Assembly (NCBI GenBank): GCA_963920705.1 | Contig: OY987228.1 | Span: forward strand, 1,736,001-1,800,000 | Reading direction: 5' to 3' | Length of the DNA stretch: 64,000 nucleotides | Source: Odiellus spinosus | Lineage: Eukaryota; Arthropoda; Arachnida; Opiliones; Phalangiidae | In this document: positions 3,238 to 64,000 of the stretch, one piece after another | How positions within the stretch are numbered: position 1 is the first letter of the stretch | Layout of the letters: every line of letters begins with the position of its first letter | The notes under the pieces: model-generated | What the model saw: only the letters and a program-made list of their open reading frames with translations | What the model was told of the DNA's origin: nothing | Databases searched by the model: none | Made by a program: the position numbers and the translations under genes

Positions 3238-3825
3238 GTGGTCCAACCATGTGTGGTAAAACCACCTGGATATTTAACCTTTTAAAAAACGCTGAGACTT
3301 TAATTGAACCACCACCCAATAGGATCGTGTACTGTTATAAAGAGTACCAACCAAAATTTAAAGACATGCAGAAAGAAATAAAAAATTTAGAGTTTATTGA
3401 GGGATTGCCCCCAGAAGATCCCAATTTTTGGGATGAAAATTTGCATAATTTTTTAATTATTGATGACTTGGCCTTTACCTGCTATAATAACGCGCACATT
3501 GCTAATATCTATTTTGTTTCCTCGCACCATAAAAATGTGTCAGTGGCTTTGTTAACTCAAAATCTATTTGGACAAGGAAAAGAAAGCCGAACAATTAGCC
3601 TTAATTCCTCGTATATCATATGTTTCAAAAATCCTCGTGATGGAAGTCAAATAAACTACTTGAGTAGACAAATATTTCCCCATAACAAAAATCTCGTGGC
3701 CAAAGCTTTTCATCTAGTGACGGCTGCTAATCCATTTTCTTACTTATGTATAGATTTAAAACAAAATATGCCTGACGAGTTACGTTTAAGAAGTAACCTA
3801 TTCCCTCACGAAGAGGACGCCGCTT
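3192..3825 (+). pseudogene. A32/FtsK-HerA-type packaging ATPase, unit 1, 3' end cut by junction
   Basis: A P-loop ATPase of the kind that packages DNA in Polintons, adintoviruses and nucleocytoplasmic viruses. Walker A is GPTMCGKT (residues 17-24), Walker B FLIIDD (87-92), followed by a TQN sensor-like motif. About 211 codons are native. At 3823-3825 the frame runs into antisense BIR sequence of unit 2, giving a chimeric ORF that ends at 3872. The native C terminus is therefore lost or altered. Length and motif order otherwise fit the family. Confidence 0.88.
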
Positions 3826-3960
3826 ACAGCCTTCGTTCAAGTAGAAAAAACCCGCTTCAGCTAGTTCCGTAGCTAGATACGAGTGACGTGGCAAATGTTT
3901 CGAGGCCGTCAACCAATTGATATTGTTAAAGGTCTCCAATCTTTTACTTTCACGATACAT
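3823..3960 (-). pseudogene. BIR protein fragment, unit 2
   Basis: Only the first 46 or so codons remain, with the start at 3960. The junction with unit 1 removes the CxxC/H/C zinc site and the tail. The fragment keeps the 12 bases that unit 4 has lost, so unit 2 did not derive from unit 4 in this stretch. Confidence 0.85.
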
Positions 3961-3961
3961 C

Positions 3962-6900
3962 TTATTCGTTCGAATATCCAAAGGGCACTGTCGAGTAATC
4001 ATCTTTGATAATTCTTTTATTAAAGGTGACACCAAAAGTCTTCTTTAAATTACCCAGAAAAAGCTTCGCCTGACTCTTGTTGCGCACCACGTTAAAGGGG
4101 ACCTCCACCGAGTACGTGGTTTCTGGTTTGTCCAAGGCCGCTTTTATCGAATCAAAATTGATGATTTCTTCATTTTTTCGATTTAGGGAAATGCCTTTCA
4201 TTTTCGTGACGCTTTTACCGTCGGCTGTTTTGTAGCTATACGATTTGGGTCCTGAACACACAAATTCAGTGATATAAGTACCCGGAACTTCATCGGTCCA
4301 GTCTCCCATAAACTGACCGATGGGTGGAAAATTTGTTTCGTCATTGTTCTTTCGGACAAAAAAAAACCGAGTCAGTGTCATAATATAAAATCCTGGTCCC
4401 CAACTGTTGCAAAGTTTGAAACAAGACAATGCGACCATAGGAGCTAACGAAGCAACCAACCACAGGCGAACCTTTGTAGTACGTCGGACAAAAATCTTTC
4501 TTGAACTTGTAAGACAACATACAAACTTCGTCATTGAAAGGTCGCATATCGGTCAGTTCGATAGTCGGGTCTGTGACAATGGATATGTAGGCTTCGTAGG
4601 TTTTGACAAAGACCGTCTTGGGCTTGTCGTGGGACATGCAGTGACGTCCCCAATTGCAGTTGAGCGCTAGCTTGGCAAGAGTTCTGAGAGGGGTGTTGCA
4701 CGTCACATACTCAGCTTTAATATCAATGTCTTCCCTCTCCTTGATCGCCTTCAAATATTCCGATTTTTCGGCTTCCGTTTTCACTTCTCTCGGCCATCCC
4801 GAATTTTGAATTTTCAGCTTCAAAAAGGTATTGATGTACCCTCCAAAGAAACCTGGATCCTCCCCTTTAACGTAGCGGTATCTTTCAGCGTAGTGATGAA
4901 CTTCGAAAATTTCCATTATGACGTATCCAAATTCCACGGCATTGTATATTTCAACACTCGTCCAGCAGCCGTCGAAAGCCCTTTCTTGATCACTGTGGGT
5001 GCAAGACTCAAGATCGTTTTCCACGCATGTCTTACATAAGGCAAAGAAAAGTTTACCCCTTGTTCGAAAAGGTAAGGCTGGTATATAGGCGTTTTTTGGT
5101 GCCAAAATCTTGCAAGACATTAATCCAAAATAAAAATTTGTTTCGTAATTAAATTTTTTTTTAATTACTTCCGGGTGTAACTTTGGATAGTCACGGTACT
5201 TACAGACAAAGGGGTAAAGACTCATTATATCGTAGAATAAGATCTTCTCATCCGGTTGAGCCTTTCGATACAAAACGAGACCTTCTGTCCGACCGCCGTT
5301 TAAAGCGGATTTCGGACCAATTGGTTCGCGAAAAGATAAAGATTTGCAGAATGTTTTTAACTCATGGTTAGTCTTCAACATTTCTTCCCATTCGCAGCTC
5401 CAGATTCGGACGTATTCGGCATTGGGGGCGACGGTTTTGATGGCGTCATCCCGATCTAAAGTTCTTTCGTACAGGTTTTTGAAAGAATCTTGTAACAAAG
5501 GATTCCACTGGCTACCCTTTGTATGAAGCGGGCATCCGTGAAAAAAGTCACCGTCGTATTGAAAAATGATTTCTGGATTAGCGCAATATCCATCAACCGG
5601 AAAACGACCAATTTTCTTTTCACCTCCCAACGATAGGGTGGTTTGTATATCGATGTTACGTTTCTCCGCTTCCCAAGCCAACCACTTTAATGCGGCTTGA
5701 CTTTGATTGATATTGTTTCCATATCCGTTTGCCGGAACAACGCCTAAACTAAATTCTTCCAGGTACTTGTGCAGAAATATGTTAGTACAAGCCCCGGCAA
5801 TGGTCAAAGCATTCATGTTCATAACGTCGTAAGCGGTTTCTTGCTGGAATAATCTTCGAAAGGTATCTATTCCTTGTTGTAACACCTTGATATCCATGAT
5901 TGTGTAATACTCCAATTCTTCGCGTAAATTATAGACTGGTTGCTTTTTCTTCTCTTCGTACCACTGGCTAAACTCGGCGTAATCTTTTTCTTTCATGTAT
6001 TCAGGTTGAAAATAGTCTTTGCTAGGGAGAGGCCCGACGTAATCCAACGTGTCTTCAGTATGAAAAGTATAGGGTAAAAATTCTTTTTTGCTTTCCCCCA
6101 ATGAAAACGTGTCGGGAAACGATCTTAAAGGTTGAGCCACAAAATTAAAGGAATCCAAGAATTTCATTTTTTGTTGGTTCAGAAAGATGGCCAGCAGCTT
6201 GCTACCTTTAAAGACAACATCAGGGGTAATGGACATTTTTAATAAGGCGTTTAAAATGAAGAAACTATCAAAGCCCATAAAATTGTGAGCGATTAAGGTT
6301 AGGTTGTCAAAGACTGGAACCGTTTTCTTCATACGTTTCGTGGCGTGTTGAATATAGGTATCTTTCGTTTGGAAGAGGTACGCCATAAACTGGTCAATGC
6401 AGTCAAACCCTCGAAATATACTGTAGGTGTATTCTCCGTCTTCTTCATTTTCCATGGCGCTAACCAACAGAACTGGGACATGTTCGTTATTTTTGGTCAC
6501 AGTCTCAGTGTCAAAATAACAATAACGTCTCTTTTCGTACTTGGTATCCAAAGGCATGACGTAACAACGGTTTTTTTCGTGTTTTCTCCGACAATTTTTA
6601 CAGGGTCTCGAACATTCGTGATTGTCTTTCAATTCTAATCCGCATTTTACGCAGCGTTTAAAATTTTTACACGTGCCGTTAGCTAAATGTAAATTGAAGC
6701 AATCTGGACCTCTAAAGTAACGCCCACAGTCGCGACATCTCTGTAACGGAATGTTAATTTCCTCGTAAAAATCTTTAAACATTTTGAACAATAGGACTGG
6801 CCACCCTTCAAACAATGATAATCCTTTAATATATGCACGTGATCGTTCAAAATAACCATAAAAATTTGTTTTTCACGCCAGGGACCGCGAAAATAAAATT

Positions 6901-7717
6901 CATTAATATTTTCTAATCGAATAATGATAATTTGGTAGTCGACCAGAAATTGTTGGAATTTTTCGATACTTTTCAAGTTAACGGCCCCTGGTTCGATTTT
7001 GGCATTATGGTATAAGAGTAGAGCTTCTTGTTTCTGTACATCCTTCGTACTGTCTCGCATTTCTTTATAAAAATATGTCTGCTCTTTGTTCAGTTTGAAG
7101 GCTTTGTTCTTTCTTTTCTCGACCCGGAGATCGGCTAAAAAGATGCCAATAGCCAAAGCTCGGCCGAAACATAAATGATCATCATTTTCCAGATAAATGT
7201 AATTGGGATTGATTTTAATAAACGTGTCAAAAGGGACAATATTTCGACGATTCAAACCTTTTTGGAGACCGCCAACTGGGACGTCACATTGTAATAGAAC
7301 CACGTCAAAAGTTAGTGAACTCTCAAGATGAAAATTTTGGTTCGATTGCGCTACTTGACTAATAGCTCGAATAACTCTCTCGGCTGTTAGGTCATTTATG
7401 TTCATAAAGGCCAGGTTAATCGGGCTATCCAATTCATCCGAGCGAATACAGAAGCGTACTCGATTTTACCCTTGGTAGTCCCGTAACAATTCGTACAGTA
7501 AAGAGTTTATAATACTGACAAAAGTTTCGTGAATTTCAGTCAGTTTAATTTGATCCAAATTTTTGAAGCGCACTTTACCTTCTACCTGCTGACATTTGTA
7601 TTTCCGCGAGTGTTTAGCTAGAATTTTATCAATAGAATAAAATTGTTTTGGGTTACTTTTTAAACTTAAATCTAATGGCTGTTCATCCTGATCGCTGTCC
7701 GATTCTTGGCTACTCAT
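3962..7717 (-). pseudogene. Protein-primed DNA polymerase B, unit 2 copy
   Basis: Full-length locus, start ATG at 7717. The N-terminal third is the Polinton-type extension with Cys pairs of zinc fingers, then exonuclease and palm domains as in unit 1. There are three breaks: TAA at 7466-7468 (the others read a Tyr codon), a 79-bp deletion between 6774 and 6775 that removes part of the zinc-finger region and shifts frame, and nine A (4358-4366, plus strand) where unit 4 has eight, shifting frame right after motif C. The largest open piece is 6815-4341. Upstream lies the 237-bp gap to the small basic protein gene, with a CCAAT-like element mutated from ATTGGCCAAT to ATTGGTCAAT. Confidence 0.92.
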
Positions 7718-7954
7718 GACTCGAAATGTTTTGAAAGTTAAAACGCGGCTCGCTTTTAACGGCGATTGGTCAATAAAATGTCAACCTACAAAGTCGATAA
7801 ACCCCGAAATATACGTAAGGGGGCTTTTGTTAATGATATTTTCTTTCTTTGTTCCAAGACTTCATATATAAAGGGTTCATACTTTACTTTTAAGAGCAAG
7901 GCCGTAATTTGTTTCGAAGTCGTAAACCGGGTTAGAAATTGAAAAGTCATTGAC

Positions 7955-8392
7955 TTACTTTTTGACCCTTTTGTTCGCTGGACTGATTTGCTTATTCGGA
8001 TTTTGCCTCATATCTTTAGCAATTTGGGTGACAATAGAGTTTACCAGTTTACACTCCTTGCTGTTTTCTTGGGCAAAGAAACGTAGTCTTCGACCATCCG
8101 CCATCCAAATTTCATTGGCTGGTAAATTCTTAATCTTGTTGTACTCGTAAATTTGTATATCAATGTAGTAATCTCCGACTTGAGCTGGTAAACTTATAGA
8201 GTAAGAAGCCGAGTCTTCTTTCACGTCGTATTTTGGAACTAAGCCACCTTGATTTTGAATAGTACTTCCTTCTTTAACTGTATTAATATGCGATATTAAT
8301 TCATCTTTCCAATCCAAATTATCTGAGAGATCAGGTAAAGAATCAAAGAAGTCGGTTACCTTGCGTTTATTCGATGATGAATTAGCAGCCAT
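7955..8392 (-). CDS. Small basic nuclear-type protein of unknown function, unit 2
   Basis: A 145-residue protein that I do not recognise. It opens with a Ser/Asn stretch and a KRK basic cluster, has an acidic segment (DFFDSLPDLSD), a beta-rich middle (residues about 60-115) and ends in a second basic cluster (NKRVKK). Both clusters could act as nuclear localisation signals. It is preserved without frameshift in units 2, 3 and 4 while the neighbouring polymerase is broken in all. It is read from the divergent promoter, with a TATATAAAG box upstream, and lies head to tail with the polymerase. It may be a viral DNA-binding or single-strand-binding protein, but nothing in the sequence proves this. 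Confidence 0.7.
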   Translation of the reverse strand: MAANSSSNKRKVTDFFDSLPDLSDNLDWKDELISHINTVKEGSTIQNQGGLVPKYDVKEDSASYSISLPAQVGDYYIDIQIYEYNKIKNLPANEIWMADGRRLRFFAQENSKECKLVNSIVTQIAKDMRQNPNKQISPANKRVKK

Positions 8393-8918
8393 GAGTTACA
8401 GGAACACTTTAAGGTTGTGAAGACTTGAAGAGATGAGAGCTGGAAACGTTTGTGAGGTTTGCCTTAATTTCTCGTCTTTATATACACATCTGGGTGTGGT
8501 TTTGAAAATCCCAGAGATGGGCGAAGTTCACGATATTCCGATTAAAATATGGTAATTTGGGCGAAGTTAGAATATAAGTAACTAGTTAGGTAATTAACTT
8601 TTCTAATTTTTTGATTGGTCCATCAAATTTTATAAGTCTTGAAAAACTAGTTGGCACGTGTAAAATTAGTTTTTGATTGGTTAATTCATAAAAGATAGGA
8701 TTTAGCTTTGATACAGGTAAAGTGCACGTGTAATCTAACTTCTGATTGGCTATTTCAATGTCAGACACTTTTGGTCCACTAGGTAAACTACTTCAGTTTT
8801 AACCCTGAAAATGAGTATAAAAGGCTTTCGTAATCATTGGAAAGATATCCAAAGTTTGATTAAACTTACAACTCAAAGTTTTCTTTTTTCACCGTCACTC
8901 AAAACAACAAGAAGTACC
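8393..8918. promoter_or_regulatory. Divergent promoter between basic-protein gene and spliced RNase H-like gene, unit 2
   Basis: The two flanking genes start on opposite strands. Leftward there is a TATATAAAG box near 8475-8485; rightward GAGTATAAAAGG at about 8812-8823. Between them sit three CCAAT boxes (ATTGG near 8612, 8676 and 8744) and two CACGTG E-boxes (near 8655 and 8723) in a roughly 65-85-bp repeating arrangement. A 60-codon open frame here lacks an ATG and is better read as promoter. Confidence 0.65.
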
Positions 8919-10704
8919 ATGTCTTTTTCTGCTGTTAAGTTTCAGTTTTTGCATTATGAAAATATTCTACGGTTATAGTTTTATGAGCCCTTTGAAGCTA
9001 TATATAGCATTAATAATATAAATATAACTCTAGATCTAACCTTATCTGGACCAATGTTGTATTAGTACGTCAACCAAGAGTGTTATAGTTACTTAAAAGC
9101 AGATCTATAAATGATAGAAATTTAAATTACATGAAATAAAAGTCATAATGAGTAAGAAAAATATTTTTATTGTAGTATTATCAAGAGTATATAATGTACA
9201 TGAGATCTCAAATGGATCAACATAAGCTTATTTGCTATTCTAGGCTAGAGAAATTTCATTTTACTAGTCTAGGATAGAGAGAGACCATAGACAAAGGCCA
9301 TTAGTTTATTTTAGTATAGATACAATACATGTGAGAGAAAAGACCATTTTACTATACTAGGATAGACAGAAATCCATTTCTAGTGTATACAGAAGTATAT
9401 TTTATTAGACTATAGTATCAATTTACTAAGATTGTGATTTTTCTGAAGTTTAACCACGCATGAATATTTGCTTGGGATAGAGTCAATGTGCCCAACAGCT
9501 GCGACGTTAAATGATGAAGGTGTTATGAGGTACAAGGCTTGTCTTTGCTAGTTTTGTTCCAATTCCTGACAAGCGTGTTTTATGGCGGCCGGAGATGAGG
9601 ATAGAGTCTGGGAGGTGTCGATTTATTTAAACTACGAGTCACGGAAAAAAAGCAGCATGCATATTAAATAGAATTAAACCCTAGTTAAATAGATATAAAG
9701 GGATAGATGGGTAATAAGTTATTTTAGAAACGTGAAAGCTAACATTAATGGTTAGTTAATTAAAAAGTTAGTGATTTTAAAATAAAGTTAAAAGCTATAA
9801 AAGGTTTAGTTAAATGGTAAAGCTAAAAGCTAGAAAGGGTTAGTTATAGGGGATATAAATTTAGAGGTACCAAGGAAAATGGATAGTAATCGCGAGATTA
9901 TAATCGTTATCGTTATCCAGAACATTTAAATTGATAAAAATTGGCTCGCCGGGAGACTGGATAACCATTGCGACAAGAAGTTCGTGAAAGCGGCATTCGG
10001 GATTCATGCAATAATAAACTAAATAGGGAAAGATCCGGATAAGAATCTCGTAGTTTAATTCGACCGATTGAAAGAAAGAGCAGGTGGGATTTTCAGGAAA
10101 TCTGCAAAGAAACAAAATTTTAATGTTAATTTTTCTAATTTTAGATTCATTGGAAAAATCCCTGGTAGTGGACGCCCTTTTCATGCAAGGGAAGGAAGTA
10201 TTTAATAACAGACGCAGTAAGTTGGATCAAACGTACATTGTTAAAGAGCTGTCAATACATAAATTTGAACAACTTGGGGACGAGTAATGGGGCACTAAAA
10301 GCATACATTTTGCTAGTTATAGAGCCCCATACCCGAAAACAGCTTTATCCCCAAAAATACGTCGTGTAAACCACTATGTACAGAATCAGCTGATAGGTGT
10401 GGCGTGGGAGTATGGTATGCTAGATTATGGACGTTTAGCCGTGCATTGTTCCGACCCAAAGTTTAAAAACTTTGATCGAATTTTTGTAAAAGGATACGAA
10501 AAAAGTCATATTATAGGAGACCTGTTTCAAATAGAATGTTTGGATTTGAACCGTTGGGATTGTCCCAAACTAGATTGGGCTTCAAATCCCTGTTCTATTC
10601 ATAAAATTAGTAAAGCAAAGTGTACCAGGGAAGCTTGCAGATATTACGCCGAGTATATCCTACAAAATCCCACCATAACAGCCTATAAGACCCCAAACCT
10701 TTAA
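8919..10704 (+). pseudogene. Spliced gene with possible RNase H-like fold, unit 2 copy
   Basis: Exon 1 is 8919-8934 (MSFSA plus one base), exon 2 is 10145-10704 after a TTTTAG acceptor. Phases match and give a protein of about 190 residues. Its pattern (VVDALFM, then VKELSI, then F..Y..PYP, then a W-YG-LDYG block, then VKGYEK, CP.L, C..H, C...C..Y) resembles from memory an uncharacterised arthropod/invertebrate family with an RNase H/DEDD-like look. That link is not verified. Two breaks: the donor is TTAAGT instead of GTAAGT, and TAA at 10285-10287 replaces AAA. The 1.2-kb intron contains CTAGGATAGA-type repeats and overlaps the last exon of zinc gene A on the other strand. Confidence 0.65.
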
Positions 10705-11083
10705 AAACCATAAAATAACAATAAATACCTGATATTATCAAGAGGGTTTTGATCCTCATCTTTAAAATACCTTTCCCTTTCCTCTAAATCCTCCTCTTCC
10801 ACAGCGGCTGCCAACCTAAAAACAAATAGAAAAAAAAATGTAACAGTTTCCCTTTAAAATCCGGTTTATGCTATTTATGCCGCATTTTCATTTTGAGGTT
10901 CGGCCTCTATCTCTTCTTCCATCTCTATGTCTATAAGAACCTGTTGGTGAGCCGCTAGTACTCCCTCCGGCCAGTCTTGTTCGTACCCCCAACTACTTTA
11001 TATAGTTAATTTAATTCGGATAACACTTGAAAATAAAATTGTAAAAATACTTACATTTGTTCGAGATTCTCCTGACGGCCCAT
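9861..11083 (-). CDS. Zinc gene A, spliced, alternative last exons, unit 2
   Basis: Exon 1 is 11083-11055 (nine codons plus two bases, donor GTAAGT). It can join two acceptors in frame. Exon 2 (10992-10875) gives a short acidic ending with a stop. Exons 3 (10815-10729) and 4 (10101-9861) give a 118-residue form with a Glu-rich segment and a putative zinc site CSFx...YCMNPEC. In unit 2 the second Cys of the CxxC pair is Phe (CSFF), so zinc binding may be weakened. A TATATAAAA box lies about 75 bp upstream of the ATG (near 11165). The 3-4 intron holds the coding exon of the opposite-strand gene. I do not recognise the protein. Confidence 0.6.
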
Positions 11084-11270
11084 TTTCAATTATTTTTAAA
11101 ATAACTGATTCGTATATAATCTTTTCGTTGAATAGAATGATTATTTTGTAGAAATTAGCCGGTTTTATATACTAGATTAACTCAAGGTTATTTTATATTA
11201 TCTAGTTATATAGTTATATTCGAGTTTTTTCTTAAGAAATACATTTTTTAATGTATGAACACGTGCATAT

Positions 11271-11768
11271 TAACTATATTAAACATTTCCCAACTTAGTT
11301 TAATTATCATATAAGAAACTCTTTACTTAATTCCTTGAATACTTTTATAGTAAAATAAGTTGAATATATTTATGCCCTAGAGGATCTAATATTTTCAATA
11401 TGATACACGCCCTTGTAAAAAAGTAATTAACTTTTTAGGGCAATATATATTTTTTATATAAACCCGAGTTTTGAAACGCTCTTTAAATATTTTAAGTATA
11501 GTTAGATTACATGTTAAATAACTATATTAAACATTTCCCAATTTGGTTTAATTATCATATAAGAAACTCTTTACTTAAAGCCTTGAATACTTTTATAGTA
11601 AAATAAGTTGAATATATTTATGCCCTAGAGGATCTAATATTTTCAATATGATACACGCCCTTGTAAAAAAGTAATTAACTTTTTAGAACAAAATATACTT
11701 TTTATATAAACCCGAGTTTTGAAACGCTCTTTAAATATTTTAAGTATAGTTAGATTACATGTTAAATA
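11271..11768. repeat. 248-bp tandem direct repeat, two copies, unit 2
   Basis: Copy A is 11271-11518 and copy B 11519-11768, differing at a few positions. Each contains a TTTTATATAAACCCGAG TATA-like block near its end and the sequence GGGCGTGTATC on the opposite strand. The pair lies between zinc gene A (leftward) and zinc exon B (rightward), so it is a duplicated promoter-like module. The same pair occurs in units 3 and 4. Confidence 0.85.
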
Positions 11769-11824
11769 GAAAGAAAAACCTTGCCATTTTAATAAAATTG
11801 AGTATATTTTGATTTTTTATATAG

Positions 11825-12176
11825 ATTTCCATCTGAGACGCAATTACCGCGGAAAAAAATCATAAAAAGGAATGAAATTCCCCAGTGTCCTTCGTGCGAC
11901 ATAACAACTTATGCTGTGTGTCATACAGTAGATCAAATTATTCATTTCTGCCTTAACCCCACGTGCTATGTCTTTAAAGAAGCCGTATATCTTCAGCGGG
12001 AGAATATTCTATTGACACAAATATCCTTTCCACCCTTAGAATATTTACCGTTAAATGATATTTGTGTCAACTGTAAACAGTTTTGCCCCCCTGAAAATCG
12101 ATATATGAAAGCGTGTAGCGTTTTTGAAAGGGAGAATAAAGTGAATTATCACTGCTGCCGCTATCCCAAAGATTAG
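11825..12176 (+). CDS. Zinc exon B (Cys-rich), unit 2
   Basis: An open frame from a TTATATAG acceptor to TAG at 12174. It encodes a basic start, CPSC at its zinc site, then HFCLNPTC, then CVNCKQFC and a final HCC. The first half mirrors exon 4 of zinc gene A: the same phase, an F-P opening after the acceptor, CxxC then CxNPxC, so the two look like paralogous exons. The first ATG in the frame (11916) is downstream of CPSC, so an upstream exon probably supplies the start, but I could not identify one. The function is unknown. Confidence 0.5.
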
Positions 12177-12449
12177 TCTTTGGATAATCCCTTTCCTTCT
12201 TTCTATTATTTTATTTTGCCCATCCTTCCCATTTCATTCCTCTATTTTATCCTTCATTTTCCTTACTAACATTAATTAATCTTTCCTTTTCAACGCTTAT
12301 TTTAACTTGAGCATCCTTTTAATCCTTTCCGAATCACATATCTAACCTTATATCTCTCTTTCACAAATGTCAAGGGATAAATTTACATCCGTGTGCTCTA
12401 CGTATAACTGTGGAGTTTAGAATATGTAAAAGGCAATCTAAAAATTAAA
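12177..12449. other. AT-rich intergenic stretch, unit 2
   Basis: Pyrimidine-rich on the plus strand (many CCTTT/TTCC runs). I see no coding frame conserved between copies. A GTTTAG possible acceptor occurs just before 12421. Confidence 0.5.
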
Positions 12450-12830
12450 GTGTCGCGTTTAGGGACGCTTTATCTCCTGGAGATTGATCATAAACGCGAG
12501 CAATATGGTGAACCTTTTCAAAATATAATTGAAAAACTTGTGTGTCTTAAAATGCTGAAGAATTCGCGTCTGCCAAATATTATCATTGAAATATCTTTGA
12601 CAATTAATCTAACTTTTACCGCATTCCATCGGTTTTGTTCGCGAGACAATGGAAATCGCGTTATATCAAGAAAAAGTAAAAAAGGGAGAATTCACAAATA
12701 TAATTCCAACGAAGAATGTCAAGACTTTCAAGATGCGGCTTTTAAAAGCCTAGATGAGCGTTATTTTGTTAAGTTTAAAGCTGAAGATACTATTAACAAT
12801 GAAATGTGGTGTGTTTTAAATTGTGAATAA
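12450..12830 (+). CDS. Orphan ORF C (hypothetical), unit 2
   Basis: An open frame of about 126 codons, or about 138 if extended to the preceding in-frame stop. It lacks an N-terminal ATG, so it may be an exon (GTTTAG acceptor near 12420) or a start-less relic. The product is mixed charged and hydrophobic with a central HRFCSRD segment and a Lys/Arg-rich patch. An AATAAA signal overlaps the stop (GTGAATAAAAA). It faces the membrane-protein gene tail to tail. I do not recognise it. It is open in units 2 and 3 and interrupted in unit 4. Confidence 0.4.
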   Translation: MSRLGTLYLLEIDHKREQYGEPFQNIIEKLVCLKMLKNSRLPNIIIEISLTINLTFTAFHRFCSRDNGNRVISRKSKKGRIHKYNSNEECQDFQDAAFKSLDERYFVKFKAEDTINNEMWCVLNCE

Positions 12831-12872
12831 AAATACAAATATGTTAAACAAAACAATTTATTGCTTTTCATT

Positions 12873-13229
12873 TCATTTTCCATATTTCCTGAGGCATGAA
12901 AAATAATAAAACCGACTTTCTCTATAAAAATACTCTGAGATTTTTACACGAACTAAAAACAATGTTTTTAAAGCTTCGTATCCGTAAAACAAAATCCAAA
13001 ATAAAGGTGAACATGTTACCAAGAGACAATGTGGATCGTTTGTTAATAACGAAACACAAAAAGCAATTGGTATTGATATGGGTAACAAAAATATAAGGAC
13101 TAGAGCGACCAGCCAATTTGGTGGAATTTGAAGAAGCAGTACAATGAAAATCCCAGTTAACAATAACCAATAGTCGATCCAGATATCGAGAGTAAAAGTT
13201 AAAAACGATTCAAGATCCAACATCTTCAA
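12873..13229 (-). CDS. Small membrane protein, unit 2
   Basis: A 118-residue hypothetical protein. The N-terminal half is strongly hydrophobic, with likely membrane segments near residues 14-34 and 38-60, a third hydrophobic patch around 70-90, and an Arg/Tyr-rich C terminus. Unit 4 reads five residues further; here a TTA to TGA change ends it earlier. An AATAAA lies just after the stop. A TATA-less upstream region with TGACGTCGG and CACGTGA elements precedes the ATG. No family was recognised. Confidence 0.5.
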   Translation of the reverse strand: MKMLDLESFLTFTLDIWIDYWLLLTGIFIVLLLQIPPNWLVALVLIFLLPISIPIAFCVSLLTNDPHCLLVTCSPLFWILFYGYEALKTLFLVRVKISEYFYRESRFYYFSCLRKYGK

Positions 13230-13289
13230 AGTTTGGATTTCCGAGTTTAAATGACGTTTAACTGAAGGGTGTTTTGTTTGATATCTTTA

Positions 13290-13735: not shown

Positions 13736-13739
13736 GATA

Positions 13740-42038: not shown

Positions 42039-42039
42039 C

Positions 42040-50921: not shown

Positions 50922-50949
50922 AAAATACAAATATGTTAAACAAAACAAT

Positions 50950-51800: not shown

Positions 51801-51804
51801 GATA

Positions 51805-53893: not shown

Positions 53894-54322
53894 TGTCTTT
53901 AAACTATTCCGTGAGATAGCTACAAAACCTAACAATTTGACCATGGAGTAACGAAATCCGGTTCTTCCATGATTTGACTAGGTTTAAAAAATTACAACTT
54001 CGTAACTATACTTTTTTTGTAGTCAGGAAGAAATTAATAAAATATAAATAAATTTACTTTTGGATTCTTTTTGCTTACTTAAAAGGGGGCAGATTAACGA
54101 GTTTATTATTTTATATGGTTGCCCTCGCCCCCCTCCCTCCGCTGTGATACACATATTCATGATCATTTTTACTAAGTTTTAAAAGTTTTGACCGATGAGA
54201 CCGTGTAAACGCCTATTAAAAAGAATTTGATTTTTAAATTTATGAATCATAAACAGCATCCCACCTATTCAAACTGTTATATAGCATATATAAACAATGT
54301 AACTTTGGAACTTAGCGCAATA

Positions 54323-54366
54323 GTTACTCACGGACTTTCAATCTAAATTGAAAGTCCGTGAGTAAC
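54323..54366. repeat. 44-bp perfect palindrome, unit 4
   Basis: Identical to the hairpin at 16292-16335 (20-bp arms, loop CTAA). Confidence 0.9.
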
Positions 54367-55028
54367 TCTAGTGTTCACACGTCAAATTTTCAAATGTGTG
54401 ACGTAAATAAACTAGCCCCTAGCGGTAACCAAAAAATATTATCTTTTTATTAAAATTGTCCTTATTTATTTTAATAAAGATAAATAATGTTGCTCTTTTT
54501 AATAAAATACACGCGCGTTGCTAAAAAAATTAAAATACAAATTGTATGATTACTAACTATACCAATATATGGCATTCATACGCTGTAATGAATTGACCAT
54601 TTCATTCATGGGAGATTTTTTGAAATAGATGGGAAAGAAAAAACAGACTCTCCCCTAAGAGAAATTTATGGTAGTGATTTTTTTTAGTTCCTTCAATTGT
54701 GCCGATAAAAGATACCGCCACATTATAAGAGCGTTTTTTGAAGGGGGAGAGGGGAAAAATGCAGGGAAGCACAGGGACCGTTCAGGAGCAGAGTGGCTCT
54801 GACCGAAGAACCTTCAGAAACCAAAGTGATTGTAACTCGAAGATCAACGAGAATTAGAAAATGATATTTTAAACTCACTTTTTTTTTGGAATGTACATGT
54901 TTTTTATATTTTTTTATTAAGAATAAACCTTTTACAATTTTCTTGTTCATTTCCATAAAATTGAATATTTTTTTTGGGGACGCCACATTTTTCAATTAAA
55001 ATTTGAAATTTAAAAACAAACGCGCAGA

Positions 55029-56863
55029 CTAGTTGAATATCATATGTATGAAAGCTTCTTGACACTGAAGAAAATCTTGAAGAGGACAATTAAGCTTCAT
55101 TCTCAACATTGTGTTTCTGATTTTCCTAACTTCAGTCGCTACTGCTGGGTCTCTGATAAGAAGGAAAACTTGTTCGAATAGTCCTAAATAAATCAATAAA
55201 CAAACATTATTAGCTATTTACAAAAAAAAGGGATAGGATTAAAGGGATAATGAAGACGAGTACAAAGTTATTTTTAATCCAATAGAAGCGTTAAAATATG
55301 TATAAATGATTTCTTCACGTTTCACAACTTTGTTTAAAGTAATTTTAAATTAACTATAATGTAGTAGAAGCCTCTGGTGAATTTTATCTTTTATGCCTAT
55401 TTTAATTTTTAACGCTCTTAAGCGATGAGAATAACATGTTTGTCATCTTCATTATCCCTTTAAAAACTCAATTGGTTTAGGTAAGATTCAGGGTTTGTAC
55501 ATGAATTTCGACAATGCATTTCCAGACATTTTACTTTTCTTAAATTTTCCTGTGTATATTTTTAAAATAAAAAATGTTAAGAATATAGAAAATTGGGCTT
55601 CAAATAAACAAAATTGAGAGTTCTGTTTTTAGAAGCTACAAAATCTTCCCTTTTCTCAGTTTTGAGTGTCATCAGTTTTTGTAACATATTTCCAGGTTTT
55701 CTATGTTTTATATGTTTGTACAAACCCTGGTATACTAATATCAAAGATTGAGGAGTAACCTACCAGCTACATTTGGTATTTGATGCATAATTCCTTTGAC
55801 CGTAATTTTGACTACACCGTGACTATTGTGGTTTGTTTCAATAGATTCCATTTCGGGAACCACATAGAGTCGATTACTGTTCAAAACACACTTGAAAAAC
55901 AACAAAATATTGTTGGCTCCTTGGATGCAAGCGTATTTAGAGTCGTGATCGTTTCCTTCCATGTAAACTTCGATGGTGCAATTAGGCCAAAAACTTTCTG
56001 GTACTAAAGAAGGATTTGGGAAATTGGGGGAATCTCCGTTCAATGTTTTGTAAAGCCAGTTGACAAAATAGGTTCCAAGTTCTTGAGGATGATTTGGCTC
56101 TTCTATGATTTCTGTGATCGGTACAGGGGCCCCTTGATGTTGTCGATAAAAAATTGGGACCTGATTATGTAGTTCAGTATTTGGCATTTGTACTATTTGT
56201 TGTACAAAAGGAGGTGGAACAGATTTTTGGTTTGGATAGGTAATGATGGGATTTAAAAAGTTCATTTCGTAACTCGGCTGACATTCTTGAGGAACTGGAT
56301 TGCGATTAGCTTGTATATTGTAAGCTTGAACTTGAAATTGGGCTACATTTTCTCGCAATTGTTCCCGCATCGCGTCCTTGAAAGATTAATTTCATTAATT
56401 ATTTTAAAAGAAACTTAGGCCATGAGAAACTTACAGCATTTCCCCAAAACCTAAGGCAGGCATCAATGTAGTCTGTTTTAGTACCATTCACCGAAACCTG
56501 TACTCCAGAATCCAGAAGATATTGAAAGAGCAGCTCCCTTTTGATTTTCCTGCTTCTTAAAAGAATTGAAGGATCCTCGGAAAACATAACTATGGCTTGT
56601 ATGGCATCTGTATAAGAATCCCTCAATGATTTGGCATTGTCAATGCTGGTGAACGTAACAAAACGTAATGGAATTCCGTGATTGTGATTTAATTTTCTCA
56701 TTGTCGAAAATTATTAATTAAATTAATTAAAGTAGTAAACTAGTAATAGTAATGTACCTTCTTTGTTCCGTGGTTTGACCAATCCCTTGGTAGTTGTAAA
56801 GGTGAGTGAGTTTAAATCCTCAAAAGAAAGTTTACGTAAAAGCGTTATAATTTCAGCATCCAT
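55029..56863 (-). CDS. C3orf38/DUF4518-like cellular protein, intact, unit 4
   Basis: Exons 56863-56758, 56607-56435, 56376-55764 and 55183-55029. All boundaries and phases match the unit 3 copy; no break seen. One residue change in the FWPDC block (Asp to Asn). 348 residues predicted. Confidence 0.85.
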
Positions 56864-57408
56864 CGTCACACTCAAAAATTTGTTAATGTTTAAACGATTG
56901 TGGTTTTCAAAATAATTAGGCTAAACTCAATATTCAAAAACGTTTTTACAAATTATGGGAAATCACGTGATGTGAACCCCCGTCGAGAAATGAAATTGTC
57001 GAGGTTTCGCGCGCTTTATGTCAAGGCCATAGCCTCCTCGATCACGCGCTTCGGCTGTGCTCACACTATAGACTATAGAAGCCCCGGTTTGAGAGAATAA
57101 ATTGAAAATTGAAACTCCCAAAAAAAAAAAGCTAAAAAGCACTAAAATGTAGGGGAGAAAAGTCGTGGCGAGATACAAATTCATGTCTAAAGTTTTAAAT
57201 TTACGCTCCAGCTTCCTGATTTTTTACCCACATCTAAGTATGTACGGATAATTTACAAATTAATTCCGAGCCTTTGAGAATTCTTCTCCAGAGGTCCCCA
57301 TTCATCCTCCTAGGTTGTAACACATATATTTTTTAAGTACAAGAAACGTTACATCATTATAACATATTTGTAAGCCACTTATGATACGTATATGTATCAT
57401 CACAACTT

Positions 57409-57767
57409 AGGGTGTTTCGAAAATAGTAATAGGATTGAGCTCCAGTGGGTTCTATGGGCCATTTTAAGACGAAAATGTTCTATGACGTTTTGTCGTACGG
57501 GGTGCCGTTCGAGAGTTACGAAATTATTTATGTGCGGATGACCCCTTAACGTACATTAATAAACGTATACTCAATGATAAAATAAGTTTAAAAGCACGCG
57601 CGTGATAAAATTGATCTTAGCATTGAGTATACGGGTCATCCGCACATGAATCATTTCGTAACTCTTAAACGGCGCTCCGTACGACAAAACGTCATAGAAC
57701 ATTTTCGTCTTAAAATGGCCCATAGAACCCAATGGAGCTCGATCCTATCACTATTTTCGAAACACCC
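57409..57767. mobile_element. Inverted-repeat element, family 2, spacer S'
   Basis: About 359 bp with ends GGGTGTTTCGAAAATAGT and ACTATTTTCGAAACACCC. The arms pair over more than 130 bp around a centre of about 50 bp (GTATACTCAATG...CATTGAGTATAC). It has no coding capacity. This is the simple form of the foldback seen in S. Confidence 0.7.
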
Positions 57768-59229
57768 GGTACATATTTTAAATATAAAAATCCCAAAAAT
57801 TTGAAACTTTGGTTTTTGATTACCAATTAGATACGAAACAAATACCAAGAACCAAACATATACTAGGTGAAAGATGTGACCTCGGGGTCTTAAAAAAAGT
57901 GAAAATAAAATTTTTAAAAGTTTGGCCTCATGACGTCACACGTCACAGTGTAGGACCCCCCCGCGAAACTTAAAAAAATTAAAAACAAAAAAGCTAAAAG
58001 AGGTAGACCATTTTCGAGATGACCATTGGATTCCTCGCCTTTTACTCTATAAACATGAGTAAATTCCAAAGAATCAATCGAGGCACGGCAGTAAGATATT
58101 GCTATTTTCACAAGAGCATAATCTTTTTTCGCTGACGTTCTAAAAATCGTGGGGGTTTACTCTAAATTTCGCCAAAAATTCAATTATTTTTATTTTCGTC
58201 TTAAAATCTTGGAATCCTAGTTTTTTAAGCATAGAAACAAGAGTACCAAATTTCATTAAGATCTGCCGACCCATGGTTGCATGCCTAGGTGAAACCATAT
58301 GGAATGACCCAGCTTTTATTCCCCGCGTTCTTTTAAGAGTCTTTTTCTCTCCTCGCGGGTTGAGTTGGTTTATTTCTCTATACAGGGTGGATATAAAAAG
58401 AGCGTTTGAGTTTTGGTCCTAGAAATCTAGTAGTGCTTTCGCTTAAAAGACCGTGCGAAAGCGACCCCGCGACTACCTCGCTCTAAGGAATCTAGTTTTC
58501 AAGATTCGAATGGTAGTTTTAGACAGTATTTCGACACTATACGAATTAACAAGTTGTAAGCCCATTTCGAAAATTTATTCGTTCTCAAACTAGGTAGTAC
58601 CATTAGTGTCTTAGTTCCGATTCTACTCCGAGATCGTCCGTGGTCTCCTCCCTCTTCTAGGAATTTCTCCAAACGATTTTGTAGCCAGAAAATTACTCTC
58701 TCTCTCCGCTAAAAAGAGAGAAGGTTGAATAAACGCGCCTTACGATAAGACCCCTAGATTCGAAGCTTAGATCTATCTACCTTTTATTACGTCTCTGCCC
58801 ATCCTGTTTGGATCTTCTCTTTGTACAATTCGCTTCGGACGGATTTCGCGGATAAAGAACCACTGCGTAACCTCTTTCCTATAGATAGCAACCCACCCAC
58901 CATTCCAGTCTCTTCTCCCGATCCCGGGCCACTTTTAGCCAAATTGCGTTCGAGAAGAGAGGCGGAGGAGAATTGATCAAAGACCAAACAGCGGTTTTTC
59001 GTCCGCCTCTCCCGATAGAAGAGGCCCTATTGGGCCCTATACATGACGGGGATTCAAATTCATAAATTTTTAAGACGTTTTCTTTAATACCGAATGTAGT
59101 TGGTTTTTGGGCTAAATCTTTTCCCGCTCTTTCCCACTAAAGATCGGAAATATCCTCGGGGCAGAAATGAAACAGTTTCGTTGGTATTTATTTTTACCCG
59201 GGACTGTCTGTATTTGCTCCTTATTCTAT

Positions 59230-59735
59230 ATACAGGGTGTTTCGAAAATGGTGGTAAGACCGAGCAACAGTGGGTTCTATGGGTCATTTTAAGACGAAAA
59301 TGCTCTATGACGTTTTGTCGTACGGGGTGCCGTTTAAGAGTTACGAAATGAATCATGTACGAATGACCCCTTAACGTACATTAATAAACGTATGCTCAAT
59401 GCTAAAATCACTTTTTATCAAGCGCGTGCTTATATTAGCGTAATTTTTTCGCTCTTAATTCACCGGCGCTTGAAGCCCTGAAGTGCGCGTGAAATATCTG
59501 TTTCTTTTAGATACGCGCGTTTAGCTTGTAAAACTCTAGCTTAGAAGCGGCCATGAAAATGAGGCTTGTAAAAACCCAGCTAAATAATAAAGCGTATTTT
59601 ATCATTATGTATATACGTTTATTAATGAACGTTAAGGGGTCATCCGCACATAATTCATTTCGTAACTTTTATATGGAGCCCCGTACGACAAAACGTCATA
59701 GAACATTTTCGTCTTAAAATGACCCATAGAACTGT
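59230..59735. mobile_element. Inverted-repeat element, family 1, spacer S'
   Basis: Counterpart of 19325-19829: begins TATACAGGGTGTTTCGAAAA; arms about 59270-59390 and 59610-59735. Confidence 0.65.
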
Positions 59736-60216
59736 GAAAACCGCAAAAAAATCCGTCCGGAGAGAAAAATGATAGGTTCGCTAGTTTCAACAATTATTGA
59801 CAGAAAATTTGTAATTCTCAAAGGCTCGGAATTAATTTGTAAATTATCCGTACATACTTAGATGTGGTTAAAAAATCAGGAAGCTGGAGCGTAAATTTAA
59901 AACTTTAGACAAGAATTTGTATCTCGCCACGACTTTTCTCCCCTACATTTTAGTGCTTTTTAGCTTTTTTTTTTGGGAGTTTCAATTTCCCATTTATTCT
60001 CTCAAACCGGGGCTTCTATAGTCACGCCGAAGCGCGTGATCGAGGAGGCTATGGCCTTGACATAAAGCGCGCGAAACCTCGACAATTTCATTTCTCGACG
60101 GGGTTCACATCACGTGATTTCCCATAATTTGTAAAAACGTTTTTGAATATTGAGTTTAGCCTAATTATTTTGAAAACCACAATCGTTTAAACATTAACAA
60201 ATTTTTGAGTGTGACG

Positions 60217-62051
60217 ATGGATGCTGAAATTATAACGTTTTTACGTAAACTTTCTTTTGAGGATTTAAACTCACTCACCTTTACAACTACCAAGGGATTG
60301 GTCAAACCACGGAACAAAGAAGGTACATTACTATTACTAGTTTACTACTTTAATTAATTTAATTAATAATTTTCGACAATGAGAAAATTAAATCACAATC
60401 ACGGAATTCCATTACGTTTTGTTACGTTCACCAGCATTGACAATGCCAAATCATTGAGGGATTCTTATACAGATGCCATACAAGCCATAGTTATGTTTTC
60501 CGAGGATCCTTCAATTCTTTTAAGAAGCAGGAAAATCAAAAGGGAGCTGCTCTTTCAATATCTTCTGGATTCTGGAGTACAGGTTTCGGTGAATGGTACT
60601 AAAACAGACTACATTGATGCCTGCCTTAGGTTTTGGGGAAATGCTGTAAGTTTCTCATGGCCTAAGTTTCTTTTAAAATAATTAATGAAATTAATCTTTC
60701 AAGGACGCGATGCGGGAACAATTGCGAGAAAATGTAGCCCAATTTCAAGTTCAAGCTTACAATATACAAGCTAATCGCAATCCAGTTCCTCAAGAATGTC
60801 AGCCGAGTTACGAAATGAACTTTTTAAATCCCATCATTACCTATCCAAACCAAAAATCTCTTCCACCTCCTTTTGTACAACAAATAGTACAAATGCCAAA
60901 TACTGAACTACATAATCAGGTCCCAATTTTTTATCGACAACATCAAGGGGCCCCTGTACCGATCACAGAAATCATAGAAGAGCCAAATCATCCTCAAGAA
61001 CTTGGAACCTATTTTGTCAACTGGCTTTACAAAACATTGAACGGAGATTCCCCCAATTTCCCAAATCCTTCTTTAGTACCAGAAAGTTTTTGGCCTGATT
61101 GCACCATCGAAGTTTACATGGAAGGAAACGATCACGACTCTAAATACGCTTGCATCCAAGGAGCCAACAATATTTTGTTGTTTTTCAAGTGTGTTTTGAA
61201 CAGTAATCGACTCTATGTGGTTCCCGAAATGGAATCTATTGAAACAAACCACAATAGTCACGGTGTAGTCAAAATTACGGTCAAAGGAATTATGCATCAA
61301 ATACCAAATGTAGCTGGTAGGTTACTCCTCAATCTTTGATATTAGTATACCAGGGTTTGTACAAACATATAAAACATAGAAAACCTGGAAATATGTTACA
61401 AAAACTGATGACACTCAAAACTGAGAAAAGGGAAGATTTTGTAGCTTCTAAAAACAGAACTCTCAATTTTGTTTATTTGAAGCCCAATTTTCTATATTCT
61501 TAACATTTTTTATTTTAAAAATATACACAGGAAAATTTAAGAAAAGTAAAATGTCTGGAAATGCATTGTCGAAATTCATGTACAAACCCTGAATCTTACC
61601 TAAACCAATTGAGTTTTTAAAGGGATAATGAAGATGACAAACATGTTATTCTCATCGCTTAAGAGCGTTAAAAATTAAAATAGGCATAAAAGATAAAATT
61701 CACCAGAGGCTTCTACTACATTATAGTTAATTTAAAATTACTTTAAACAAAGTTGTGAAACGTAAAGAAATCATTTATACATATTTTAACGCTTCTATTG
61801 GATTAAAAATAACTTTGTACTCGTCTTCATTATCCCTTTAATCCTATCCCTTTTTTTTGTAAATAGATAATAATGTTTGTTTATTGATTTATTTAGGACT
61901 ATTCGAACAAGTTTTCCTTCTTATCAGAGACCCAGCAGTAGCGACTGAAGTTAGGAAAATCAGAAACACAATGTTGAGAATGAAGCTTAATTGTCCTCTT
62001 CAAGATTTTCTTCAGTGTCAAGAAGCTTTCATAAATATGATATTCAACTAG
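60217..62051 (+). CDS. C3orf38/DUF4518-like cellular protein, intact, unit 5
   Basis: Exons 60217-60322, 60473-60645, 60704-61316 and 61897-62051, same phases, no break. Changes against unit 3 include Leu8 to Phe and a Val to Leu in the Pro-rich linker. The upstream CpG-rich region has lost about 17 bp near 60022 compared with unit 3, so promoter activity might differ. Confidence 0.85.
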
Positions 62052-62714
62052 TCTGCGCGTTTGTTTTTAAATTTCAAATTTTAATTGAAAAATGTGGCGT
62101 CCCCAAAAAAAATAATCAATTTTATGGAAATGAACAAGAAAATTGAAAAAGGTTTATTCTTAATAAAAAAATATAAAAAACATGTACATTCCAAAAAAAA
62201 CAGTGAGTTTAAAATATCATTTTCTAATTCTCGTTGATCTTCGAGTTACAATCACTTTGGTTTCTGAAGGTTCTTCGGTCAGAGCCACTCTGCTCCTGAA
62301 CGGTCCCTGTGCTTCCCTGCATTTTTCCCCTCTCCCCCTTCAAAAAACGCTCTTATAATGTGGCGGTATCTTTTATCGGCACAATTGAAGGAACTAAAAA
62401 AAATCACTACCATAAATTTCTCTTAGGGGAGAGTCTGTTTTTTCTTTCCCATCTATTTCAAAAAATCTCCCAAGAATGAAATGGTCAATTCATTACAGCG
62501 TATGAATGCCATATATTGGTATAGTTAGTAATCATACAATTTGTATTTTAATTTTTTTAGCAACGCGCGTGTATTTTATTAAAAAGAGCAACATTATTTA
62601 TCTTTATTAAAATAAATAAGGACAATTTTAATAAAAAGATAATATTTTTTGGTTACCGCTAGGGGCTAGTTTATTTACGTCACACATTTGAAAATTTGAC
62701 GTGTGAAAACTAGA

Positions 62715-62758
62715 GTTACTCACGGACTTTCAATTTAGATTGAAAGTCCGTGAGTAAC
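62715..62758. repeat. 44-bp perfect palindrome, unit 5
   Basis: Arms pair perfectly, loop TTAG; reverse complement of the unit 2 and unit 4 version. Confidence 0.9.
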
Positions 62759-63187
62759 TATTGCGCTAAGTTCCATAGTTACATTGTTTATATATGCTAT
62801 ATAACAGTTTGAATAGGTGGGATGCTGTTTATGATTCATAAATTTAAAAATAAAATTCTTCTTACCAGGCGTTTACACGGTCTCATCGGTCAAAACTTTT
62901 AAAACTTAGTAAAAATGATCATGAATATTTGTATCACAGCGGAGGGAGGGGGGCGAGGGCAACCATATAAAATAATAAACTCGTTAATCTGCCCCCTTTT
63001 AAGTAAGCAAAAAGAATCCAAAAGTAAATTTATTTATATTTTATTAATTTCTTCCTGACTACAAAAAAAGTATAGTTACGAAGTTGTAATTTTTTAAACC
63101 TAGTCAAATCATGGAAGAACCGGATTTCGTTACTCCATGGTCAAATTGTTAGGTTTTGTAGCTATCTCACGGAATAGTTTAAAGACA

Positions 63188-64000
63188 TCACAATCGTGTG
63201 GAGCGAAAACAATTATAAATATAATTCGTTTGATGTATTATTAATCTTCGGGGTTTTGAAAAATCAAATTCTATTCCTAAGAAGTACTTAATTTCTCCTA
63301 AATCCGTAACGTCAAATGATTTTATTAATAATTCGAATATCTTCTTCATTGTTATTATATATCGCGAAAGTATCAATATATCATCAACGTAAACAATGAC
63401 TATTGCTGACCATCCTAATCTGTACACGCAGTTACATCCTTTAAGTCTTGATAAACCGAGTTGTCCGAATGTTTTTTCTAGTTCATTGAACCATTCACGA
63501 CCACTTTGCTTAAGTCCATATAACGCCCTTTTCAATTTCCAAATATAGTTTTCTTTGCCAGGTATGACGAATCCTTCTGGTTGCGCTAAATATATATTTT
63601 CTGACAACTTTCCATACAAATAGGCGCATTTTATATCGAGATGTTTGTGAGTCCATCCGAAACAGACTACGAAAATGTATAATAATATACTGATTTTTGT
63701 GAAATTAACTACCGGGGCATAGGTTTGATAATAATCAATTCCATATTTTTGAGCGAATCCCTGAGCTACTAAACGAGCTTTGTATTTACTAATTTCACCA
63801 TTTGCTTTCTTCTTTATAGTGTATACCCATTTACATCCTATAATTTTCTTCGCTTCTGATTTGGGTTTATTATCATAAACGTCTCTTTCTTTTATAGTTT
63901 TCAATTCTTCCTTCATAGTAGTTTCCCATTTTTCACAATCTTTGCAACTCATAGCTTCTTGATACGTAAGTGGTATTTCCACACAATTTGCTTCGATATT
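63188..64000 (-). pseudogene. Ty1/copia RT relic, unit 5 (runs off window)
   Basis: Open from 63982 to 63188 with KARLVAQGFAQ, YGLKQS and YVDD; same truncated end before RNase H. The integrase part lies beyond the window. Confidence 0.88.

What the first reader, a model, noticed from the sequence alone, without database searches (positions are those of the whole stretch)
3823..64000. Alternating inverted array in which the whole 36-kb palindrome is followed by its own inverted copy, with the spacer flipped
Units alternate in orientation, and spacer S (19244-21927) reappears as its reverse complement S' (57283-59812). Block [U'-S-U] is therefore followed by [U'-S'-U]. This suggests either breakage-fusion/palindromic amplification followed by inversion, recombination between arms that flips the spacer, or an extrachromosomal inverted dimer that later formed a concatemer. 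An assembly error is a real alternative.
Basis: partly seen in the sequence, partly recalled or inferred. Interest (0 to 1): 0.85.

Follow-up and report, generated by a model that had tools for sequence, protein, structure and literature searches.

The report
Fossil burst of mirror-image DNA amplification
A 20-kilobase stretch of a chromosome, probably an animal's, holding part of a virus-like transposon and a copy of a host gene, seems to have folded back on itself at both ends and multiplied into a long mirror-image array in about one burst, a pattern best known from tumour and yeast gene amplification.

Summary
The window lies inside a 219-kb array (C4:1,631,543-1,850,882) of 14 arms that alternate in orientation at 13 of 13 steps. 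A second version (6 arms, 5 of 5 steps) starts 287 kb upstream between homologous flanks. Two founding junctions explain those read, each a fold-back: tail-to-tail with a 2.5-kb loop (S), head-to-head with a 1.0-kb loop (J). In this array both loops occur in both orientations (S 3+/3- and one hybrid; J 2+/2-, two lost). Copies form a near-star: 504 of 547 variants are private to one copy, which fits one burst better than stepwise breakage-fusion-bridge cycles. The unit is host DNA with a DUF4518 gene copy, a Copia fragment and part of a multicopy polinton. Best explanation: a fragment with both ends folded back became an inverted-dimer ring, was amplified by rolling or double-rolling replication, and stayed in the germline, where copies decay without detected constraint. 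Arm exchange continued: the two versions differ by inversions. Private substitutions, indels and insertions argue against assembly error inside the array. The two versions may be haplotypes assembled in tandem; read depth is needed.

The parts
1..3825 (+). Arm A (array arm a6, inner end only): polinton PolB, BIR and ATPase part, then up to 12 bp of the J core (3814-3825; the last 3 are shared with arm B)
3823..3825 (.). Head-to-head junction J1: read as a deletion derivative of J, 3-bp microhomology (CTT, read by hand)
3823..19243 (-). Arm B (a7), truncated inside the BIR gene
19244..21927 (+). Loop S (S4): loop of the tail-to-tail fold-back, 2.5 kb in the usual form; contains a dispersed hairpin repeat (19324-19830) and a second hairpin repeat (21320-21925)
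21928..39886 (+). Arm C (a8)
22509..23469 (+). DUF4518 (C3orf38-like; the C3orf38 name is recalled) gene copy in two frames; no intron-like gap in the array copies
25315..27435 (-). Copia retrotransposon fragment (RVT_2; the integrase part is judged by eye) present in arms a1-a11 and a14 (12 of 14; a12 and a13 are truncated)
29345..29842 (+). Two-copy tandem repeat of 248 bp within the arm
33406..36848 (+). Polinton DNA polymerase B region, in several ORFs in copy C (the Pfam match is to the ORFs of arms A and B)
37154..37654 (+). BIR-domain ORF
   Evidence: (same ORF in arm A)
37843..39337 (.). 1.5-kb insertion with inverted termini (by eye) in the ATPase gene of arm C; among the head-to-head junctions read it recurs only at the mirrored junction in block 1 (C4:1421591-1423082)
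39887..40904 (-). J core: 1.0-kb asymmetric loop of the head-to-head fold-back; encodes a pX-like ORF (40349-40816) and a further ORF; read as continuous with arm D, which has a short private deletion at its edge
40905..57282 (-). Arm D (a9)
57283..59812 (-). Loop S' (S5): S in the opposite orientation
59813..64000 (+). Arm E (a10), continues to C4:1807817 with an internal deletion

Best explanation
The array is the germline remnant of about one burst of palindromic amplification. A roughly 20-kb fragment (host flank S, DUF4518 copy, Copia fragment, inner part of a polinton) ended at two breaks. Each end folded back and was joined to itself (loops of 2.5 kb and 1.0 kb), giving a ring or hairpin-capped molecule equal to an inverted dimer: arm-J-arm'-S. 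This was multiplied quickly, most simply by rolling or double-rolling-circle replication, into an alternating concatemer. Recombination between the inverted arms, during and after the burst, turned loops and larger blocks round. The copies then decayed mostly independently; several J axes were trimmed by microhomology deletions. Shown here: alternation, shared junction sequences, both loop orientations, near-star divergence, no detected constraint, block inversions between two versions of the locus. Inferred: the fold-back origin of the loops, the ring intermediate, the replication mode and the order of events.
For: Strict alternation: 13 of 13 and 5 of 5 steps (positions). The S junction is the same at 8 of 8 left edges and 6 of 6 complete right edges read in block 2. 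The C-type J signature is seen at J1, J2 and J3, and the block 1 junction has the mirrored layout of J2. Loop orientations: S1+, S2+, S3-, S4+, S5-, S6-, S7 hybrid; J core Jb-, J1+ (on 12 bp only), J2+, J3-, lost at Ja and J4; block 1 S -,+,- and one J -. 504 of 547 variants in 14,774 sites are private; 33% private would be expected for a neutral coalescent of 12. Private rate 2.0-4.1 per kb in the 12 copies counted. Substitutions are GC-to-AT biased (267 against 113), and amino-acid-changing fractions lie near or above the neutral expectation. On C107 and C183, S, DUF4518 and the next marker occur in the same order and orientation without a palindrome at S, so S is read as one arm's own flank. 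PMC3147054 (abstract and passages): in amplified products of a yeast DRCR system, sequences flanked by inverted repeats are randomly oriented. PMC12807874 (abstract and passages): fold-backs at both ends of a fragment give a dimeric circle, and the process explains amplification made of inverted segments.
Against: No circle or replication intermediate was seen; sequence alone cannot tell a ring from rapid linear doubling. 43 variants are shared by two or more copies where about 3.5 are expected by chance recurrence (rough simulation). Pair-shared ones lie in near neighbours (35 variants; mean distance 2.57 against 4.29, 0 of 5000 shuffles), with S partners somewhat over-represented (7 against 3.0, P 0.025) and J partners weakly so (6 against 2.9, P 0.068), so some local copying or a short second step occurred. 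Block inversions between the versions happened after the burst, so present loop orientation need not date from it. The loop numbers are small. The native sequence at the J breakpoint was not read, so the fold-back at J rests on the reading frames and the D-type arms, and its microhomology is unknown. On C107/C183 about 4.7 kb of other sequence separates S from DUF4518.
Confidence: 0.6

Rival explanations
1. Breakage-fusion-bridge cycles: each cycle made a new fold-back, doubling the array stepwise, followed by an inversion.
For: Alternating inverted units and fold-back junctions are its usual signs; the J junctions of block 2 differ from one another; S partners share slightly more variants than chance.
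Against: The differences between J junctions read as deletions around one shared junction. 504 of 547 variants are private, whereas stepwise doubling over time predicts nested sharing; S and J partners are on average about as distant as other pairs. S junctions are the same throughout block 2.
Confidence: 0.1
2. Rapid linear doubling in a few cell divisions (breakage-replication/fusion of a linear fragment) rather than a ring.
For: Also gives only inverted segments and near-simultaneous copies (PMC12807874 passages).
Against: Repeated independent end fusions should leave several junction variants from the start, whereas S has one junction sequence at the edges read and J2, J3 and the block 1 junction share one layout. 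Copying of an already formed inverted tetramer would avoid this objection.
Confidence: 0.16
3. Tandem amplification of an inverted dimer with fixed loops, with all flips made later by crossing-over between inverted arms.
For: Block 1 against block 2: b1 matches a1, b2 a3, b4 a9, and the a10-a9-a8 stretch appears reversed with its S and J loops, so such exchange does happen.
Against: Long-lived arm exchange can homogenise arms: human Y palindrome arms exceed 99.9% identity with rare inversions (PMC3723533 abstract), whereas here arms keep private variants. Both may be true in part.
Confidence: 0.13
4. Assembly artefact: misjoined or duplicated repeats.
For: The whole locus appears twice in tandem with 99.4-99.7% identical flanks; another contig shows similar tandem spacing (C84 pairs 698 kb apart), so unpurged haplotypes are plausible.
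Against: Inside block 2 the arms have their own substitutions, insertions and deletions; in the window, indels of 1-36 bp occur between B, C and D and substitutions outnumber gaps by about 4-6 to 1; substitutions are AT-biased, unlike what is expected of read error (recalled).
Confidence: 0.08

Closest known systems
Double rolling-circle replication products (HSR/DM-type amplification) in yeast, PMC3147054 (abstract and passages read), which cites Watanabe and Horiuchi 2005 (not held; not read)
   Same: Amplified products with inverted-repeat units; sequences between inverted repeats in random orientation
   Different: There induced and selected in the laboratory; here natural, in an assembled genome, with no sign of selection and old enough for about 0.35% private change per copy
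Dimeric circles and inverted-segment amplification by breakage-replication/fusion, PMC12807874 (abstract and passages read)
   Same: Fold-backs at both ends of a fragment, with paired nearby breakpoints (here 1.0 and 2.5 kb apart)
   Different: Described from experimental and human disease genomes; here kept in an animal genome assembly and built partly of a polinton
Palindromic amplification of ERBB2 in breast tumours, PMC5314454 (passages read)
   Same: Fold-back inversions within an amplified segment
   Different: Somatic; its authors propose repeated palindrome formation such as BFB cycles, which the near-star genealogy here does not favour
Human Y palindrome P6, PMC3723533 (abstract read)
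   Same: Long inverted arms with loops that can turn round
   Different: MSY palindrome arms are homogenised by gene conversion (over 99.9% alike) and inversions in P6 are rare; here arms differ by 0.7-1.0% and inversion is common
Polinton/adintovirus elements (gene set recalled)
   Same: Arms carry PolB (PF03175), an A32-like ATPase (below Pfam cut-off) and a pX-like ORF
   Different: Arms seem to hold only the inner part of one, joined to host DNA; no polinton integrase or capsid ORF was recognised and terminal repeats were not searched for

Membership tests
Palindromic amplicon from an inverted-dimer intermediate (type II episome / HSR-like array) | Units strictly alternate in orientation | tested here: met
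   13 of 13 and 5 of 5 steps (from positions)
Palindromic amplicon from an inverted-dimer intermediate (type II episome / HSR-like array) | Two fold-back junctions, one per fragment end, shared by all units | tested here: met
   S edges the same at 8 of 8 left and 6 of 6 complete right edges in block 2; J1, J2, J3 share a signature, the block 1 junction has the J2 layout, Jb keeps part of the core; Ja and J4 have lost it and cannot be tested
Palindromic amplicon from an inverted-dimer intermediate (type II episome / HSR-like array) | Loops between arms in random orientation (DRCR products) | tested here: met
   S 3+/3- plus one hybrid, J 2+/2- with two lost in block 2; small numbers, and later flips are possible
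Palindromic amplicon from an inverted-dimer intermediate (type II episome / HSR-like array) | Copies made in one burst | tested here: met
   504 of 547 variants private, with a minority shared by near neighbours
Palindromic amplicon from an inverted-dimer intermediate (type II episome / HSR-like array) | Extrachromosomal circle | not testable with these tools
   No reads or circle data
Palindromic amplicon from an inverted-dimer intermediate (type II episome / HSR-like array) | Amplification kept by selection for a gene in it (usual in tumours and yeast tests) | tested here: not met
   DUF and Pol changes: N fractions 0.75-0.93 against 0.77-0.80 expected; selection at the time of the burst cannot be excluded
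Breakage-fusion-bridge array | New fold-back each cycle and nested copy relationships | tested here: not met
Gene-conversion-homogenised palindrome (Y type) | Partner arms nearly identical and more alike than non-partners | tested here: not met
   S partners average 0.57-1.23% and J partners 0.58-0.91% difference in nine segments, against 0.60-0.98% for other pairs (a13 left out); pair-shared variants are mildly enriched in S partners (7 against 3.0)
Polinton/adintovirus | PolB, packaging ATPase, pX-like core protein | tested here: met
   PF03175 E=4.8e-42; ATPase 42% and pX-like ORF 26% identical to ORFs of the flank polinton, whose pX-like ORF matches Adeno_PX below the cut-off
Polinton/adintovirus | Complete element with integrase, capsid genes and terminal inverted repeats | tested here: inconclusive
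   No polinton integrase or capsid match among the arm ORFs scanned, but Pfam also missed capsid-like ORFs in the flank; terminal repeats not searched for

The most novel reading that the evidence does not exclude
The burst used the polinton's own replication: a protein-primed, strand-displacing viral polymerase acting on a virus-host hybrid fragment made the fold-back ends and the inverted-dimer concatemer in the germline, so a polinton would be an agent of host gene amplification rather than a passenger.
Probability: 0.08. Interest if true: 0.85.

Novelty: new variant of a known kind. Interest (0 to 1): 0.6.

Why it matters
Palindromic amplification is studied mainly in tumours and yeast, where selection and short time hide the founding event. 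Here the founding junctions, loop orientations and copy genealogy can be read at base level in an assembled genome with no sign of selection, including how such an array is later trimmed and reshuffled. Eight full-text searches listed, as far as titles and the starts of abstracts show, no report of such an array in an animal germline; one of them returned nothing at all, only the top rows were seen for (12 of 146), and the library holds open-licence papers only.

Tried and rejected
Considered and rejected: (a) plastid-type inverted-repeat isomers (no Rfam match at gathering score and no tRNA in the window); (b) S as a transposon inserted at a palindrome centre with a short target duplication, suggested by the edges; dropped because C107/C183 carry S in the same order and orientation relative to DUF and m24, and C4:4.36 Mb carries S 1-534 at 494 bp from DUF, close to the 472 bp of the array, so S reads as the arm's own flank; (c) J1 and J2 as independent fold-backs; dropped because J1 contains up to 12 bp of the J core; (d) one inversion of the 36-kb block; dropped because D is closer to B in 5 of 7 segments.

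Led nowhere: PolB in viral contigs (none of 7 stretches confirmed); DUF protein search (0 of 17 candidates); PolB protein search (7 hits at 25-32% identity); host identification through a neighbouring reverse transcriptase (the 120 listed of 504 hits are 29-38% identical and one carries a species name); EMBO J 2005 paper not held. The host species was not identified; that it is an animal is inferred from the polinton and DUF4518 content.

Rows dropped: one search hid Smite/Spal matches under 250 bp; one search left out arms a12 and a13 and sites with more than two copies missing; searches left out a13; block 1 arms were not and were read only in part (b1 4178, b2 5871, b3 1498, b4 745+4355, b5 2436, b6 1497 sites). 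In one search, b5 shares the 1.5-kb insertion with a8 but none of a8's private substitutions, which is against a simple b5=a8 match. Microhomologies were read by hand. One search's search for the J2 motif returned the J1 site; one search corrected this (39876-39886).
Full report
Observation. The window is C4:1736001-1800000 of an assembly of 443,074,358 bases in 286 contigs.

Extent. Twenty 10-kb pieces around the window, mapped with 20 short markers, show arms alternating from C4:1631543 to 1850882: a1-S1-a2-Ja-a3-S2-a4-Jb-a5-S3-a6-J1-a7-S4-a8-J2-a9-S5-a10-J3-a11-S6-a12-J4-a13-S7-a14. The window's A-E are a6-a10. DUF4518 matches over the whole genome give the same order and a second block of six arms (14 and 6 arms; 13 of 13 and 5 of 5 alternations). 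Arms a12 and a13 are truncated, and a13 is split by an insertion. L027, L028 and L023, outside the ends, have no match to the window at E 1e-10 over 120 bases, nor does L022 after base 881.

Junctions. Tail-to-tail junctions in block 2 have the same S edges: 8 of 8 left edges and 6 of 6 complete right edges read, with a few private changes beside them. S7 is a hybrid of two S left halves. One block 1 copy of S is shortened. Head-to-head junctions share one layout: arm, 1.0-kb core, inverted arm. J2 and J3 are complete but for a short private deletion in D, and mirror each other; J1, Jb, Ja and J4 read as deletion derivatives with 2-3 bp of microhomology (by hand). Ja and J4 have lost the core, so their descent from J is inferred. 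The core encodes a pX-like ORF, similar (26% identity, E=2e-12) to an ORF of the neighbouring polinton that matches Adeno_PX below its cut-off. It reads as continuous with the D-type arm, while the C-type arm jumps into it after window base 39886. So J is taken as a fold-back with a 1.0-kb loop. S is likewise taken as one arm's native flank: on C107 and C183, S, DUF4518 and the next marker (m24) occur in the same order and orientation with no palindrome at S, though the S-to-DUF gap is about 4.7 kb longer there. None of the 41 listed matches to a polinton marker lies beside them, but only 40 of 155 candidates were scored. The far end of S was joined back to the arm with an apparent 2-bp overlap (by hand).

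Loop orientation. In block 2, S is + at 1, 2, 4 and - at 3, 5, 6; the J core is + at J1 (on 12 bp) and J2, - at Jb and J3. Block 1 has S -,+,- and one J -. A plain tandem repeat of an inverted dimer would have one orientation throughout.

Genealogy. Nine arm segments (14,774 sites; 7-12 copies; a12 and a13 left out) hold 547 variants, 504 private to one copy and 43 shared. Mean pairwise difference is 0.68-0.98% in the nine segments. S partners average 0.57-1.23%, J partners 0.58-0.91% and other pairs 0.60-0.98%. Chance recurrence under a star predicts about 3.5 shared variants, so much of the sharing is real. The 35 pair-shared variants lie in near neighbours (mean distance 2.57 against 4.29, 0 of 5000 shuffles), with S partners at 7 against 3.0 expected (P 0.025) and J partners at 6 against 2.9 (P 0.068), and several fall in short patches, as local conversion or a short second duplication step would give. 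Substitutions are AT-biased (267 against 113), and amino-acid-changing fractions fit no constraint. With a recalled insect-like rate of about 3e-9 per site and generation, 0.35% private change is of the order of a million generations; this is a rough inference.

Two versions. Blocks 1 and 2 have the same left array edge (arm position 35161) and flanks 99.6-99.7% (left) and 99.4-99.5% (right) identical. Private variants identify b1 with a1, b2 with a3, and b4 with a9; near S, b3 and b6 resemble a10. Block 1 has the mirrored J2 with its 1.5-kb insertion. The a10-a9-a8 stretch is therefore read as reversed, and block 1 has fewer arms. Since these variants arose after the burst, the inversions did too. 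Against a clean match, b5 shares no substitutions with a8. About 5 kb of another polinton in the right flank, bounded by inverted repeats, is also flipped between the blocks. Whether the blocks are haplotypes or a duplication cannot be told without reads.

Content. The arm holds a DUF4518 gene copy, a Copia fragment and part of a polinton present in many copies (156 candidates; the 40 scored match over nearly the whole query). A probable native DUF4518 gene with intron-like gaps lies at C4:10.535 Mb, 87-90% identical.

Mechanism. Two fold-backs shared across the array, strict alternation, both loop orientations and a near-star of copies together point to an inverted-dimer intermediate amplified in a burst. 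Published yeast work reports random orientation of sequences between inverted repeats in such products (PMC3147054, abstract and passages), and recent work derives dimeric circles from fold-backs at both ends of a fragment (PMC12807874, abstract and passages). The ring and the replication mode are inferred.

Noticed in passing
L022:1493-9550 (C4:1851493-1859550) and L033: A different polinton family in the right flank: an ATPase 42% identical to the array's, pX-like, integrase and adenain-like protease ORFs (Pfam matches below their cut-offs), and ORFs that look like capsid genes by eye only; about 5 kb of it bounded by 0.35-0.78-kb inverted repeats is flipped between the two array versions.
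   Followed up: partly
window 19324-19830: A hairpin repeat dispersed over the genome (40 of 1672 first-look candidates scored), self-complementary at about 73%.
   Followed up: partly
window 20743-21300: The right part of S matches a second dispersed repeat family (518 candidates, 40 scored), 91-94% identical where it lies outside the S copies, some copies in inverted pairs.
   Followed up: no
window 21320-21925: In the window's S, the small palindrome is longer by about 120 bp than in the other five complete block 2 copies and C107/C183, as if one arm had been copied into the other.
   Followed up: partly
C1:17776114-17827227 and C4:4355909-4398401: Further copies of the DUF4518 segment: five in one direction 11.7-13.9 kb apart on C1 and three on C4; the locus seems prone to duplication.
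   Followed up: partly
C84:822566-834391 and 1521016-1532840: Inverted pairs of the polinton core 10.8 kb apart, present twice 698 kb apart on one contig; perhaps unpurged haplotypes.
   Followed up: no
window 2580-3080: A BIR (inhibitor-of-apoptosis) ORF between PolB and ATPase of the polinton.
   Followed up: no
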